Assembly (NCBI GenBank): GCA_025936755.1
Contig: JAICSS010000009.1
Location: 1 to 64,000, forward strand
Direction of reading: 5' to 3'
Source of the DNA: Solirubrobacterales bacterium
GTDB lineage: Bacteria > Actinomycetota > Thermoleophilia > Solirubrobacterales > 70-9
Length of the DNA: 64,000 bases
The translations under genes were made by a program, and so were the position numbers. Positions 27,622-32,477 of the stretch are shown here, piece after piece. How positions within the stretch are numbered: the stretch's first letter is position 1; each line of letters begins with the position of its first letter. A model generated the notes under the pieces. That model was not told the origin of the DNA, made no database searches, and saw only the letters and a program-made list of their open reading frames with translations.

Positions 27622-29280
27622 CTACTTGAATTCGAAGCTGCTCAGGTAGTGGCCGAAGGTCGGGTTGAAGATCACGCTTTCGAGGTCGATTTCGTCGGAG
27701 ACGAAGGTCGACAGCGTCCGCGTCCCGTACGGCGCCCAGGGAGCCTGTTTCATGGTTTCTTCGTCCAGTTCGGCGTAGGCCGCTTCCTGTTCGGGCCCGA
27801 GCTGTTCTTCGCCGAGCTTCGCGATCTTCTCGTTGATCGCCGGGTCGTCGAGTTCGGCGAAGTTGCCGTTGTTGGTCTGCAGGATGCTTTCCCCGGCCAG
27901 CAGCGGCTGGAAGAAGTCGTTCGGATGCGGGTAGTCCTGGAACCAGTCGGCCCACCCGGCGTCGAGTTCGGGCGTCGACTGGTTGCCGATCACCGTGAAG
28001 TAGTTGTCGGCGTTGATCTGTTTCAGCGTCGTCTTGAAGCCGAGTTCCTTCAGCACCTCGTTGAAGTATTCGCCCGCTTCGTTGTTGGGGCTTTCGGTGT
28101 CGGTCCAGACGGTGATGTCCATGTCCGAGGGGTTGGCTTCCTTCATCAGTTCTTCGGCCTTGCCCATGTCATGGGGATACAGTTCGAACTGTTCGTAGCC
28201 GGGCATCCCCGGCGGCAGGATCTGCTGGGTGGACTTGATCTGGCCGGCATAGATCCTTTCCAGCGCTTTCGCGTCGACCGCGTAGTTGACCGCCTGCCGG
28301 ACCTTGACGTCGTCGAACGGCGGCCGGTTCACGTTCATCCAGAAGTAGTAGGTGCTGATCGTCGGCTCGACCCGGAACTGGCTGCCTTCGAACTTTTCCT
28401 TGACTTCGGCGTAGCGCGAGGCCGGCGGCGGGTTCTGCATCCACTGGTAGGTGCCCTTTTCGACGTCGTCGACCTGGGTCTCCGGGTTGCGGATCACCGT
28501 CATCTTGGCGTGGTCGACCACGCCTTCGGGCAGGTCCGGCATCGCCTTGCCGTTGGCTTTGGCCCAATAGGGATTGCGCTCGTATTCCCAGCCCTTGCCC
28601 GGCTGCGACTTGGTGATCATGTACGGCCCGGTGGCGGGGGGCGGGTTGGCCGAGAGGTCTTCGATCGGGGTGTCCTTCGGCAGCGGCGCCACGAACATCA
28701 GCCCGAGCTCGTTGGTGAAGGTGCCTCGCGGCGCTTTCAGGTTGATGACGATTTCGCCGGTCTTGTCGTTGGCCTTGATCCCCGAGATCGGGCCCTGTTT
28801 CGTTTCGGCGAACTTTTCCGCGCCTTCGATCGAGAGGTAGAAGGGCGAGCCGCCGGAGTTGAGCTGGATCATCCGTTCGACCGCGAAGGGGAAGTCGGAG
28901 GCTTTGACCGGGGTCCCGTCGGAGTATTTGAGCCCGGGGCGGAGGAAGAGGGTGTAGGTCTTGCCGCCGTTGCTGATCTTCGGCAGTTCTTTCGCCAGGC
29001 CCGGGATGACTTCGCTGCCTTCGGCGCCGTTGGCGTGCTTGTAGGTGAGCAGCGGGACGTAGACGTCCGCCATCGCCGTCCACCCTTCGGCCGTGTAGGA
29101 GAGCGCCGGGTCCAGGTAATCGGGGAAGGAGGCGTAGGTCCCGTTCAGGGTCCCGCCTTTCTGGCCGCCACCGCCACCGCCGCCGGAGGTTTCACCGCCG
29201 CCGCCCCCGCAGGAGGCCAATCCAACCGCCGCGACCGCTGCAAGGACCAGAACCGCGATGAGTGCTCCTAGCTTCTTCAA
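27622..29280 (-). CDS. Oligopeptide-type ABC substrate-binding lipoprotein (SBP family 5)
   Basis: 552 residues. Lipoprotein signal with lipobox L-A-S-C (~Cys24), followed by a glycine-rich tether (two G5-7 runs) and a family-5 binding fold (GGTLNGTYASFPDYLDPALSY start; late DVKVRQAVNYAVD hallmark). First gene of the opp operon after the MFS exporter, whose stop it overlaps by four bases. It uses GAA/TTC-type codons and GTT/TTT at the third position more than its neighbours, giving a slightly lower local GC. Peptide, nickel or glycoside ligands are possible; peptides are most likely. Confidence 0.93.
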   Translation of the reverse strand: MKKLGALIAVLVLAAVAAVGLASCGGGGGETSGGGGGGGQKGGTLNGTYASFPDYLDPALSYTAEGWTAMADVYVPLLTYKHANGAEGSEVIPGLAKELPKISNGGKTYTLFLRPGLKYSDGTPVKASDFPFAVERMIQLNSGGSPFYLSIEGAEKFAETKQGPISGIKANDKTGEIVINLKAPRGTFTNELGLMFVAPLPKDTPIEDLSANPPPATGPYMITKSQPGKGWEYERNPYWAKANGKAMPDLPEGVVDHAKMTVIRNPETQVDDVEKGTYQWMQNPPPASRYAEVKEKFEGSQFRVEPTISTYYFWMNVNRPPFDDVKVRQAVNYAVDAKALERIYAGQIKSTQQILPPGMPGYEQFELYPHDMGKAEELMKEANPSDMDITVWTDTESPNNEAGEYFNEVLKELGFKTTLKQINADNYFTVIGNQSTPELDAGWADWFQDYPHPNDFFQPLLAGESILQTNNGNFAELDDPAINEKIAKLGEEQLGPEQEAAYAELDEETMKQAPWAPYGTRTLSTFVSDEIDLESVIFNPTFGHYLSSFEFK

Positions 29281-30581
29281 CGCATCTCCTCCGATTTGAG
29301 ATTGCCCATGGGCGCGGGGATCAACTCCACCACAACGTCGTCATGGCCGTCAAGCGACGGCTTTACGGATATTTCGCGGCTTTCCAGCCATTTCCCCCTC
29401 AACAGCGGCCCCATCACGACAACTATGGCCACTACCCCGACCCCCGCGACGAGAAACGTCAGCCGGGGGCTGGCGAGGGCGGCGACTATGCCGCCGAGGG
29501 CGAAGCCGACGCCCGGCATCGCCGCGCCGATCGACTCGAGCACGCTCATCACCCGTGCCTGCATTGATTCCGCCGTCAGCTCCTGCACGGCGCTGATCGC
29601 CGTCACCCACTGAATCCCGTTGCCGGCGCCGCCGACCACCGAGACCGCGCAGGCGACCGCGAGGGTCGGCGCGACGGCCAGCCCCAGGTACCCGGCGCCC
29701 ACGGCGAGGGTGCTGAACAGCAGCAGCAGCGCCAGCGAGGCCTGGCGGAGGCGGGCGAAGAGGAGGCCGCCGAGGACCATCCCGACCCCCCAGCTCGCGA
29801 GCATGACGCCGTAGCCGGTGTCGTTGGACCCCAGCGTCTCCTTCACGTAGATCACCTCGACCGGGAGCACGGCGGCGAAGAAGACGAAGGCCAGGCCCTG
29901 GGCGAGGAGCAGGCGGCGCAGGGTCGTCTGCTCGCGGATGTAGGAGAGGCCGGCACGAACGCGGTCCCGCATCCGGCCGGGTTCGGGCTCGGCCTGCGGC
30001 ATCGTCCCGGCCGTGAAGAGGACCCAGGCGACCGCGTAGAAGGACACGGCGTCCAGCAGCAGCGCCGACTGCACCCCGAAGCCGGCGACGACGAGGCCGG
30101 CGAGGGCCGGGCCCACCGCCGCCCCGCCGGTGAAGAAGACGTTGAGGATCGCGTTGCCGGCCCGCAGTTCCCCCCTCGGTTCGAGCGCGGTGGCGACGAC
30201 CGCCCGGGTGAGGGCGCGGCCGGACAGGGCGAGGGCGCCGTCGACCGCGGCGAGGAGGACCACCGCCGCCAGCGAGAAGTGGTCGACGAGCAGGGCGAGT
30301 CCGCCGAAGGCCGCCGCCTCGCCGCAATAGATGACCGGAAGCGCAAACCGAGGCGGCGGCCTCTCCGCGTGGGCGACGAGGACGGGGGCGAAAAGAGCCG
30401 GGAGGAAGCGGGTTCCGAGGAAGAGCGCCGCCGTCGCCAGGGCGCTCTCGGTGCGGTCGAAGACGAGGACCGAGAGGGCGATGATCCCCATCCAGTCTCC
30501 CAGCTCGTTCAGCGCGTAGGACGCGGCGAGCCGCCGGAAGAGGGGCTGGCGGAGGGGGGCGGTTAGGCGTGGGCTGGTCAT
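29277..30581 (-). CDS. MFS transporter (MFS_3/EntS-like exporter)
   Basis: 434 residues, 12 TM helices, starting with the LFRRLAASYALNELGDWMGIIALSVLVF pattern seen in EntS-like and macrolide-type MFS exporters (hallmark N-E-L-G-D-W in TM1). The ATG at 30581 lies next to an AT-rich region with two CACAA-repeats. Its stop overlaps the start of the opp binding protein, so it may be the first gene of that operon, or the opp genes may have their own promoter inside it. Substrate unknown. Confidence 0.9.
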   Translation of the reverse strand: MTSPRLTAPLRQPLFRRLAASYALNELGDWMGIIALSVLVFDRTESALATAALFLGTRFLPALFAPVLVAHAERPPPRFALPVIYCGEAAAFGGLALLVDHFSLAAVVLLAAVDGALALSGRALTRAVVATALEPRGELRAGNAILNVFFTGGAAVGPALAGLVVAGFGVQSALLLDAVSFYAVAWVLFTAGTMPQAEPEPGRMRDRVRAGLSYIREQTTLRRLLLAQGLAFVFFAAVLPVEVIYVKETLGSNDTGYGVMLASWGVGMVLGGLLFARLRQASLALLLLFSTLAVGAGYLGLAVAPTLAVACAVSVVGGAGNGIQWVTAISAVQELTAESMQARVMSVLESIGAAMPGVGFALGGIVAALASPRLTFLVAGVGVVAIVVVMGPLLRGKWLESREISVKPSLDGHDDVVVELIPAPMGNLKSEEMR

Positions 30582-30610
30582 GAGTGGCCGGGCGTATTAC
30601 TGCATTTCTG

Positions 30611-30640
30611 CACAACTTTTCCTGCAGATGCACAAGTTTC
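30611..30640. promoter_or_regulatory. Candidate operator: CACAA direct repeats upstream of the MFS gene
   Basis: CACAACTTTTC (30611-30621) and CACAAGTTTC (30631-30640) are in the same orientation, 20 bp apart, 30-60 bp upstream of the MFS start. The second is identical to the 10-mer overlapping the tetR start at 11236. Confidence 0.5.
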
Positions 30641-30686
30641 GAACAAGCTGTGCTACAAAGTGACCAGCAATTGAGGAGTTTCCACG

Positions 30687-30755
30687 ATGCAGCGCACAAG
30701 GTTGCGGGCTTCAACGACTACGGAAGGGGCAGAGAACATGGGCTTTCGTCACTAA
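30687..30755 (+). CDS. Candidate 22-residue peptide ORF
   Basis: ATG at 30687 to TAA at 30753-30755, preceded by GAGGAG eight bases upstream, one of the best-spaced ribosome sites in the window. The product starts M-Q-R-T-R-L-R, has a Thr run, and ends G-F-R-H; no hydrophobic segment. Two hairpins follow (GCAGACC/GGTCTGC at 30775-30800 and the strong one at 30812-30840). It could be a leader peptide, a peptide signal, a RiPP-like precursor or chance. No maturation gene is adjacent. Confidence 0.35.
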   Translation: MQRTRLRASTTTEGAENMGFRH

Positions 30756-30811
30756 GCATTCCAAGAGTTTCAGCGCAGACCGAATGATCGTGAGGTCTGC
30801 ACCAGTCTTCT

Positions 30812-30840
30812 GAAGGGCGCCCTGGATGGGGGCGCCCTTC
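30812..30840 (+). terminator. Terminator-like hairpin after the peptide ORF
   Basis: Perfect 10-bp stem GAAGGGCGCC/GGCGCCCTTC with a 9-nt loop, 57 nt after the peptide stop. No T tract; the following bases are GTCGTTCC. Confidence 0.55.
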
Positions 30841-31079
30841 GTCGTTCCGGGGCCGGTTCCCCCCTCCGCGGGGCCTGGGGGGGCCGGCGATTCGAGTTTG
30901 GGCGAATTTGGCCATCTGGCTAAAGGTCTTGCCGATCATTTGGCAACCGGTCTAACTTTGGAGTTCCCAAACATCGCGAAACCGCTTTTGAGCGGTCGCG
31001 CAGGGAAAAGGAGCCCCCCCGGGAAAGAGGTAGGCCGGGGTTTCGCCCGAGTTCCCGAGTCGACGAATTCAAATCAGAG
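30841..31079 (+). other. Long untranslated leader upstream of the HD-GYP gene, candidate structured RNA
   Basis: About 240 bp with no plausible gene before the start at 31080. It contains a TTGCC/GGCAA hairpin (30929-30946), a 10-bp hairpin CGCG-aa-ACCGCT/AGCGGT-CGCG (30975-31000) and a following GGGAAAAGGAGCC...GGTAGGCCGGGG stretch. The end resembles in part the GGTAGG...CGGGGTT tail of c-di-GMP-I riboswitches, but the conserved core is not convincingly present, so I call no riboswitch class. Confidence 0.35.
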
Positions 31080-32477
31080 ATGGCCCAAACTCGCCCCACC
31101 CGCACCGCGATCGCCCTCATGGCGCTGGCGTTGGCGCTGACCGCCGCCGGCGCCGTCTGGGACGCCCCCAAAAGCGAATGGGACCTCGGCTTCTTCGCCG
31201 TCCTCCTCGCCTTCTCGATCTTCAGCGATCTCACCGCCGTCTCCACCGAGTCGAAGCTGAAGATCTCCGGCAGCTTCCTGGCGCTGGTGATCGCGATGGT
31301 CTTCCTCGGCGGCACGCCGGCGGCGATCATCGGCGTCGCCACGATCCTCACCGGCTGGCTGCGCTGGCGCGACGAGTGGCACTACCTGTTGAACAACATC
31401 CTCACCTACGCGCTCTTCCCGCTCGTCGGCGGCATCGCCTTCCACGAGGGGATCGTCGCGCTCGGCCTCACGCCCTCGGAATCCTGGTTCTACCTCTGCG
31501 TCTTCGGCCTCTTCCAGCTCGCCCTGGCGATCAACTTCGTGATGATCGCCAGCTACGGCTGCTACGTCGAGCGCTCCTCCTTCTCGACCAAGCTCAAGGT
31601 GCTGCCGCCGGTGCTGCCATCGGAGTTCGCGAGCGCGATGCTCGCGGTTGCGGTCGCCTACATCTACTACGAGATCGGCCTCGCCTCGATCGCCCTCTTC
31701 GGCGTCGTCCTCGTCACCTTCCAGTACCTGCTCGGCCAGCTCCTGCTCTCCCAGCAGCGCGCCGGCGAGCTGGAGCTGCGCAGCAAGCAGCTGGCCAGCT
31801 TCCAGGTCGGGATGTTGAGCGCGATGCTGCGCACGCTCGACCTGCGGGACCAGATGACCGCCCGCCACAGCGCCGCCGTGGCCCGCTACTCGCGGGCGAT
31901 CGCCCAGCGGGCCGGCTACTCGCGTCGCGAGGAGGAGCTCGTCCACATCGCCGCGCTGCTCCACGACATCGGCAAGTTCATCCTTCCCGACCGCATCCTC
32001 AAGGCGAACGTGCCGCTCACCGACGAGGACTGGATGCTGATCAAGCGCCATCCGCAGCAGGGCGCCCGCGTCGTCTCCTCGCTCGACGGCTACGGCCCGG
32101 TGGCGGAGATCATCCTCGCCCACCACGAGCGGATCGACGGCAAGGGCTATCCCCGCGGCCTCGCCGGGGACGAAATCCCGGAGCTGGCGCGGATCATCTC
32201 CGTCGCCGACACCTACGACGTGATGACCGCCCGTGACTCCTACCGGACGCCGATGTCCAGCTACGACGCGATCGTCGAGCTGCGCCGCGTCGCCGGCAAA
32301 CAGCTCGACGCCCGCTTCGTCGAGATCTTCGTCGAGCTGCTCGAGGGCAAGGACGTCTCCTTCCAGCACGGCGAGGACGCCGACTTCGAGAAAGAGCTGG
32401 CGCTGGAGGCGCGGATCGAAGAGACCGCCAGCCCCGGCGGCGAGGCCAGCCGCTTCCAAGTCGCCGGCGTCAACTAG
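31080..32477 (+). CDS. Membrane-bound HD-GYP domain protein (likely c-di-GMP phosphodiesterase)
   Basis: 465 residues. About seven TM helices occupy residues 8-225, then a linker helix and the HD-GYP domain (about 245-425). The metal motifs HDIGK and HHERIDGKGYP (the GYP signature) are intact, so hydrolysis of c-di-GMP is expected. The N-terminal membrane part is a putative sensor of unknown ligand. It has a leader of over 200 nt. The PilZ glycosyltransferase at 8258 is a possible distant target. ATG at 31080. Confidence 0.92.
   Translation: MAQTRPTRTAIALMALALALTAAGAVWDAPKSEWDLGFFAVLLAFSIFSDLTAVSTESKLKISGSFLALVIAMVFLGGTPAAIIGVATILTGWLRWRDEWHYLLNNILTYALFPLVGGIAFHEGIVALGLTPSESWFYLCVFGLFQLALAINFVMIASYGCYVERSSFSTKLKVLPPVLPSEFASAMLAVAVAYIYYEIGLASIALFGVVLVTFQYLLGQLLLSQQRAGELELRSKQLASFQVGMLSAMLRTLDLRDQMTARHSAAVARYSRAIAQRAGYSRREEELVHIAALLHDIGKFILPDRILKANVPLTDEDWMLIKRHPQQGARVVSSLDGYGPVAEIILAHHERIDGKGYPRGLAGDEIPELARIISVADTYDVMTARDSYRTPMSSYDAIVELRRVAGKQLDARFVEIFVELLEGKDVSFQHGEDADFEKELALEARIEETASPGGEASRFQVAGVN

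What the first reader, a model, noticed from the sequence alone, without database searches (positions are those of the whole stretch)
30687..30840. 22-residue ORF with ideal ribosome site followed by hairpins
GAGGAG at 8-bp spacing, a short ORF ending G-F-R-H, then a 7-bp and a perfect 10-bp hairpin, in a 500-bp gene-free region between a divergent exporter and an HD-GYP gene. It is a compact unit that might be a leader peptide (attenuation), a peptide signal exported by the neighbouring MFS or opp system, or a small RNA.
Basis: partly seen in the sequence, partly recalled or inferred. Interest (0 to 1): 0.55.

Follow-up and report, generated by a model that had tools for sequence, protein, structure and literature searches.

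The report
Five-codon gene beside an exporter
Hidden in a gap between two soil-bacterium genes is what looks like a real gene of only five codons, kept with its neighbours across an order of bacteria; it may make a tiny secreted signal, though what it does is untested.

Summary
The unit is an 18-base ORF, ATG GGC TTT CGT CAC TAA (MGFRH, 30738-30755), with its own ribosome site, a conserved repeat block upstream and a GC-rich hairpin after it. DNA homologues in 14 complete loci of two genera (MGYRH, MGYKH, MGWRH, MTFRTN and others) show conservative codon changes and all three stop codons. A like mini-ORF (M-G-hydrophobic-R/K, 5-7 codons) lies divergent from the same MFS exporter in 30 of 86 exporter loci of the Solirubrobacterales; shuffles give 0.08. 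Presence follows the exporter's phylogeny. The other constant neighbour is a c-di-GMP enzyme (HD-GYP, or GGDEF-EAL) whose membrane half has a predicted ECF S-component fold. Many exporter/enzyme pairs lack the mini-gene. Downstream genes differ between clades, which disfavours an attenuator leader; no P450 lies on the contig, which disfavours a biarylitide precursor. Favoured mechanism (inferred, about 0.4): a leaderless peptide exported by the MFS protein and read by the membrane c-di-GMP enzyme. Translation, export and sensing are untested.

The parts
30738..30755 (+). mini-gene: ATG GGC TTT CGT CAC TAA, MGFRH, 18 bases with stop
   Evidence: aligned with 13 further homologous loci found by DNA similarity, conservative codon changes; same position and motif M-G-hydrophobic-R/K beside the orthologous MFS gene in further genera
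30722..30729 (+). ribosome site GGAAGGGG, 8 nt before the mini-gene
   Evidence: purine-rich site in all aligned loci, AAGGAGGG in L004 and L005
30704..30715 (+). conserved motif GCGGGCTTCAAC in the 5' untranslated stretch; function unknown
   Evidence: GGCTTCAAC, or a variant with one or two changes, in 14 of 14 rows of the alignment
30609..30659 (.). conserved control region between the divergent MFS gene and the mini-gene: direct repeats TGCACAA (30609-30615, 30629-30635) and TGTGCTACAAA (30649-30659), the last with an extended -10-like TGCTACAAA; likely operator/promoter
   Evidence: TGCACAA twice and TGTGCTACAA invariant in 14 aligned loci; the paired-repeat pattern occurs once in the whole genome; not matched by the sigma-70 scan
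30775..30800 (+). 7-bp hairpin between stop codon and terminator
   Evidence: a stem of 6-10 pairs of differing sequence at this place in 11 of 14 loci
30811..30841 (+). GC-rich hairpin, likely intrinsic terminator of the mini-gene transcript
   Evidence: stem of 9-13 pairs 24-62 nt after the stop in 14 of 14 loci, tails of 3-7 T in 8
29277..30581 (-). divergent MFS exporter, Pfam MFS_3
   Evidence: orthologues in 86 of 232 genomes of the order at E<=1e-50
31080..32477 (+). membrane c-di-GMP phosphodiesterase: residues about 4-203 predicted ECF S-component-like fold, residues 251-411 HD-GYP domain
   Evidence: Pfam HD_5; AlphaFold models and structure comparison

Best explanation
Shown by comparison: 30738-30755 is very probably a real, stand-alone gene of five codons (5-7 in relatives), divergent from an MFS exporter. 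Inferred: the transcript starts just after the repeat block (about 30660-30670) and ends at the hairpin at 30841; ribosomes make the peptide fMet-Gly-Phe-Arg-His without any leader. Inferred mechanism: the peptide is exported by the divergent MFS protein and is a ligand of the neighbouring membrane protein, whose ECF S-component-like domain binds it and switches the attached c-di-GMP enzyme (HD-GYP here, GGDEF-EAL in one other genus), reporting cell density or export activity. The shared operator-like repeats would set peptide and exporter levels together.
For: Conserved ORF in 14 of 14 complete homologous loci with all three stop codons used; amino-acid similarity of differing codons far above column shuffles (codons 2-4: 2.35 against -0.51, P=0.0005; codons 2-5: P=0.001). 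In 86 divergent MFS-upstream regions: 33 mini-ORFs with a ribosome site, 30 with the motif; dinucleotide shuffles average 4.3 and 0.08; opposite strand 1 and 0; in 561 kb of background strand 17 of 84 mini-ORFs fit the motif and all 17 are the MFS-adjacent ones. 19 of 20 MFS loci of the family at E<=1e-50 carry it, the 20th ends at a contig edge. Presence follows the MFS tree: 7 changes against 26.7 shuffled. Distant MFS paralogues: 0 of 5. The ECF-S/c-di-GMP partner gene is near in 34 of 35 mini-gene loci by a match to another locus's protein (weak for L160), and the 35th has an HD-domain gene there. Membrane domain: the 22 best PDB entries are all ECF S-components or CbiM/NikM, Z 8.8-14.8. 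The output domain is swapped between genera while membrane domain, exporter and mini-gene stay.
Against: No transcript, ribosome or peptide data. The exporter/ECF-S enzyme pair exists without the mini-gene in 17 of 86 loci, and in 11 of 20 further loci a weak partner match lies downstream of an MFS gene without mini-gene, so the pair does not need the peptide. The peptide varies in length and C-terminus, and position 3 can be V, I, C or T, which is loose for a ligand unless it co-varies with its receptor (not tested). Known ECF S-components bind vitamins or metal ions (recalled), not peptides. MFS export of so short a peptide is a guess. The synonymous fraction alone is not significant (P 0.08-0.13). 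Related genomes are not independent.
Confidence: 0.4

Rival explanations
1. Leader peptide / attenuator: translation or stalling on the mini-ORF controls read-through of the hairpin into the gene downstream, as in mef(E) or erm leaders.
For: A short ORF followed by stem-loops and a terminator is the classical anatomy; mef(E) has the leader MTASMRLR and a Rho-independent terminator (passages of PMC4335068). In 13 of 14 homologous loci of the window's genus and its sister genus the HD-GYP gene lies downstream on the same strand. Three distant peptides end R-x-R (MSWRVR, MVYRGR, MIARTR), which resembles the macrolide arrest motif (recalled).
Against: The constant neighbour is the divergent MFS gene, which cannot be attenuated in cis. 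In 5 of 5 contexts of other genera of the family the HD-GYP gene is convergent, and in one genus of another family a LysR gene and pur genes follow. FliA-like boxes stand between mini-gene and HD-GYP gene in L108, L116, L117 and L120.
Confidence: 0.15
2. Intracellular micropeptide that acts on the MFS protein or the c-di-GMP enzyme from inside, as a small regulator, without export.
For: Same genomic linkage as the main reading; no signal sequence.
Against: Five residues is below the size of the small-protein regulators that I recall; a cytosolic pentapeptide would probably be degraded fast (inference).
Confidence: 0.15
3. Small regulatory RNA in which the ORF is only a ribosome-loading or dual-function element.
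For: The transcript-like unit is about 175 nt with stems conserved in place but not in sequence (14 of 14 and 11 of 14), and a conserved untranslated motif GGCTTCAAC.
Against: No Rfam family reaches its threshold there. In the other genera only the ribosome site and the first codons remain alike while the rest of the RNA differs; codon changes look like protein.
Confidence: 0.12
4. Precursor of a cross-linked peptide product (biarylitide-like RiPP).
For: Same size of gene (18 bases), and MGYRH and MGYKH fit MxYxH literally (PMC13417212: abstract, first of eight parts and one passage seen). Cytochrome P450 genes exist elsewhere in the genome.
Against: None of the 6 P450 places of the genome lies on this 91-kb contig; in G005 two lie on the mini-gene's contig but about 27 kb away (listing cut). 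Most variants lack the aromatic pair (MGFRR, MGVRRG, MTFRTN). No modifying enzyme is a constant neighbour.
Confidence: 0.08
5. Chance or misread conservation of a promoter region with no translated product.
For: Very short ORF; no expression data.
Against: Shuffles, background, tree and codon pattern.
Confidence: 0.05

Closest known systems
Leaderless communication peptides (SIP/LCP) of Firmicutes
   Same: ultra-small ORF (24 bp in S. pyogenes) that encodes the mature peptide without leader, with its own ribosome site, divergent from its partner gene (PMC10518010, abstract and passages)
   Different: the divergent partner there is the cytosolic regulator RopB; here it is an MFS exporter, with a membrane c-di-GMP enzyme beside; peptide sequence and phylum differ
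Biarylitide precursor genes (bytA)
   Same: 18-bp, five-codon gene; some members fit MxYxH
   Different: comes with a cross-linking P450 gene close by; none here
mef(E)/erm leader peptides
   Same: tiny ORF followed by hairpins, near an MFS efflux gene
   Different: that leader lies in cis upstream of the gene it controls; here the MFS gene is divergent and the downstream genes change
ECF transporter S-components (RibU, BioY, FolT, ThiT, CbiM/NikM)
   Same: predicted fold of the membrane half of the neighbouring HD-GYP protein
   Different: fused to c-di-GMP enzymes; ligand unknown

Membership tests
Leaderless communication peptide (LCP) | ultra-small ORF encoding the mature peptide without secretion leader | tested here: met
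   18-24 base ORFs with ribosome sites
Leaderless communication peptide (LCP) | divergent from a RopB/Rgg-type receptor gene | tested here: not met
   the divergent partner is the MFS_3 gene
Leaderless communication peptide (LCP) | peptide acts between cells | not testable with these tools
   needs culture experiments
Biarylitide RiPP | five-residue MxYxH/Y-type precursor | tested here: inconclusive
   MGYRH and MGYKH fit; MGFRH of the window and most others do not
Biarylitide RiPP | cross-linking P450 gene close by | tested here: not met
   0 of 6 P450 places of the genome on contig C35
Attenuation leader peptide | short ORF and terminator in cis upstream of one conserved regulated gene | tested here: not met
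   ORF and hairpin present, but the downstream gene changes between clades; the feature holds within the window's genus and sister genus alone
ECF S-component fold (membrane half of the HD-GYP neighbour) | S-component helix fold | tested here: met
   predicted model, pLDDT 79; 22 best entries all S-component/CbiM/NikM, Z 8.8-14.8, next Lnt 8.2; Foldseek best E only 0.009; Pfam ECF_trnsprt in one relative E 0.0021, below cut-off
ECF S-component fold (membrane half of the HD-GYP neighbour) | works with EcfT/EcfA as an importer | not tested
   not searched
Rfam RNA families | match to a curated covariance model | tested here: not met
   no family at gathering score in 30580-31090; best match E 0.47

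The most novel reading that the evidence does not exclude
A previously undescribed signalling module of Solirubrobacterales: a gene of five to seven codons, among the smallest known, makes a leaderless peptide that an MFS_3 protein exports and that an ECF-S-type membrane receptor converts into c-di-GMP output, with HD-GYP or GGDEF-EAL as exchangeable output domains.
Probability: 0.3. Interest if true: 0.9.

Novelty: new variant of a known kind. Interest (0 to 1): 0.72.

Why it matters
[quoted passage not shown] This would be a second, independent family of the same size, with no constant modifying enzyme beside it, found by conservation of position across an order. Gene finders do not look for such genes. 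If the peptide is a ligand of the neighbouring protein, it would also give the ECF S-component-like fold a role as a peptide receptor and put a peptide signal directly onto c-di-GMP. Each step can be tested with a synthetic pentapeptide.

Tried and rejected
Rejected: the 22-codon frame (ribosome site and start not conserved). Opp importer as general partner: the SBP gene is beside the MFS gene in 14 of 14 contexts of the window's genus and sister genus, but of 27 contexts called only 8 hold it and all 8 are of those genera. HD-GYP leader as a general role. Rfam family. P450 partner. Second copies: the operator pattern is unique in the genome. A loose mini-gene pattern in 61 genomes gave 27 places, 11 of them the MFS-adjacent gene; the other 16 are fewer than the 26 of the reversed control, so they look like chance, but two read in frame as MGFRSA (G000:C17) and MGWRPR (G026:C25) and were not followed up. 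Presence outside the order: in 396 genomes of the phylum the MFS orthologue at E<=1e-35 is found in 4, all of the order; viral contigs 0.

Led nowhere: NCBIfam names for the exporter are all below cut-off, including 'ryptide export MFS transporter' (22 of 575 bits); no related solved structure for the MFS protein by sequence. The sequence model R1 finds only the two genera with confidence, so the wider family rests on position and motif, not on DNA similarity.

Limits and dropped rows: of 87 MFS places at E<=1e-50 in the order I fetched 86; G178 was left out. Mini-ORFs were first looked for on the divergent strand only; the opposite strand, 561 kb of background and the rest of the mini-less loci were the controls. 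The motif was written after seeing the first sequences. L095 (17 codons) and L115 (GTG start) were added by eye to make 35 loci; L115 and the truncated L070 are labelled without mini-gene, and 2 of 86 rows were too short for the tree. L141 and L160 stand alone on the tree and may be chance. For L141 the partner query was its own neighbour, so that match is circular; for L116 the query was also its own, but that protein clusters with the others. The full-length model of the HD-GYP protein is poor (mean pLDDT 58); the membrane half alone is better (79).

Literature: no paper on this family was found in the searches (the last for six of the peptide strings, 0 papers), and none on an ECF-S/HD-GYP fusion by the listing; the library holds only open-licence PMC papers. 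Seen: PMC13417212 abstract, first of eight parts and one passage; PMC10518010, PMC4335068 and PMC13361665 abstract or passages; all others search listing only.

Full report
What is there. The window lies in a genome of the order Solirubrobacterales; relatives carrying the same repeat block are named Solirubrobacterales, Thermoleophilia, Actinomycetota or Actinobacteria MAGs. At 30581 an MFS_3 exporter starts on the minus strand and at 31080 an HD-GYP protein on the plus strand.

What is conserved. A search of the 501-base gap in 61 genomes found matches in relatives that mostly cover the first third of the gap, about 30600-30755, and stop near the TAA; the nearest relative matches further. Aligned, 14 complete loci (12 of 12 genomes of the window's genus, 2 of 3 of a sister genus; the third ends at a contig edge) share tandem TGCACAA repeats, TGTGCTACAA, a motif GGCTTCAAC, a ribosome site and a short ORF beginning 81-89 nt after the start of GTGCTACAA. 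The ORFs are MGFRH (2), MGYKH (2), MGYRH, MGWRH, MGFRR, MGWRHG, MGWKHG, MGYRFN, MTFRTN, MTFRTS, MTFRSN and MGFHAGH.

Is it coding? Differing codons encode similar residues more than shuffled columns do (codons 2-4: mean BLOSUM62 2.35 against -0.51, 12 distinct sequences, P=0.0005; codons 2-5: 1.35 against -0.58, 13 distinct, P=0.001), though the synonymous fraction alone is weak (P 0.08 and 0.13). All three stop codons are used. A hairpin of 9-13 pairs follows in 14 of 14, with tails of 3-7 T in 8; another stem precedes it in 11 of 14. In the window the tail is poor and the promoter does not fit the simple consensus.

Beyond the two genera. In five other genomes of the family, where the DNA model no longer matches, a mini-ORF with a ribosome site sits at the same place: MGWRRG, MGYSRR, MGYRKG, MGCRGG, MGVRRG. 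Across the order I took the divergent 340 bases upstream of 86 of 87 MFS places. They hold 33 mini-ORFs of 4-7 codons with a ribosome-site match of 4 or more; 30 fit M[GTSVA][FYWCVIT][RK]. Shuffles give 4.3 (largest 10) and 0.08 (largest 1). The opposite strand gives 1 and 0. In 561 kb of strand from the window and 19 context loci 84 mini-ORFs occur, 17 fit the motif, and all 17 are the MFS-adjacent ones. Five distant MFS paralogues have none. On the MFS tree (84 rows) presence needs 7 changes against 26.7 for shuffled labels, 0 of 500 as low; these controls do not remove relatedness.

Neighbours. In the window's genus and sister genus the order is Opp-SBP-MFS, mini-gene, HD-GYP, ADH (SBP and MFS in 14 of 14 contexts fetched, HD-GYP in 13 of 14). 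Elsewhere Opp is not seen, and the HD-GYP gene may be downstream, convergent, or replaced by a GGDEF-EAL protein with the same membrane domain next to the MFS gene. Of 35 mini-gene loci, 27 have the membrane-domain partner in the short locus and the other 8 in a wider stretch; one of the 27 (L141) rests on its own protein as query and one (L160) is weak. 17 MFS loci have the partner and no mini-gene; of 34 with neither, 20 were fetched further downstream and 11 show a weak partner there. So exporter and enzyme look like an older pair, and the mini-gene is a third part, present in some clades.

The partner. Pfam knows only the HD-GYP half. The membrane half, folded alone (pLDDT 79), matches ECF S-components: FolT Z 14.8 (151 residues, 3.2 A), BioY 14.2 (161, 2.9 A), RibU 14.0 (157, 3.2 A), the transition-metal transporter 4m5b 13.9 (189, 3.5 A); the first 22 entries are all of that fold, the next is Lnt at 8.2. 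Foldseek ranks the same fold first but at E 0.009, and a relative hits Pfam ECF_trnsprt at 0.0021, below its cut-off. The fold assignment is therefore probable; the ligand is unknown. The names BioY and NikM/CbiM for these chains are partly recalled.

How it may work. An ultra-small gene that makes its peptide without a leader, next to an exporter and a membrane enzyme with a ligand-binding type of fold, is most simply read as signal, exporter and receptor. Only the gene and its linkage are supported; translation, export and sensing are inference. Leader-type attenuation fits the anatomy in two genera but not the changing downstream genes, and FliA-like boxes (consensus recalled) stand before the HD-GYP gene after the mini-gene in four loci. 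A biarylitide precursor needs a P450 close by; the genome's six are on other contigs. An RNA function remains open because of the conserved stems.

Novelty. Ultra-small genes are known: bytA (18 bp) and SIP (24 bp). This family shares their size, not their partners. I found no report of it in the searches listed under Tried and rejected.

Noticed in passing
31080-31784: The HD-GYP protein's membrane half is predicted to have the ECF S-component fold, and homologous halves are fused to GGDEF-EAL elsewhere (L165 by Pfam; L166, L169, L171 by similarity to it); Pfam and NCBIfam have no model over cut-off for it.
   Followed up: partly
L096-L099, L105, L108, L110, L111, L113, L116, L117, L120, upstream of the HD-GYP gene: FliA (sigma-28)-like boxes, CTCAA or CTAAA then GCCGATA (consensus recalled), before the HD-GYP gene, which would tie it to motility control.
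   Followed up: partly
30900-31010: A second block upstream of the HD-GYP gene (GGCCATCTGGCTAAAGGTCTTG and relatives), with TTGAAA-17-TAATTT-like promoters in L004 and L014 by eye.
   Followed up: no
L095 (G049), divergent from the MFS gene: A longer version of the mini-gene, MGYRASDSRLKKNVKSL, with ribosome site and a terminator-like hairpin.
   Followed up: no
30704-30715: Conserved untranslated motif GCGGGCTTCAAC; its CUUC could pair with the GAAG of the ribosome site, not tested.
   Followed up: no
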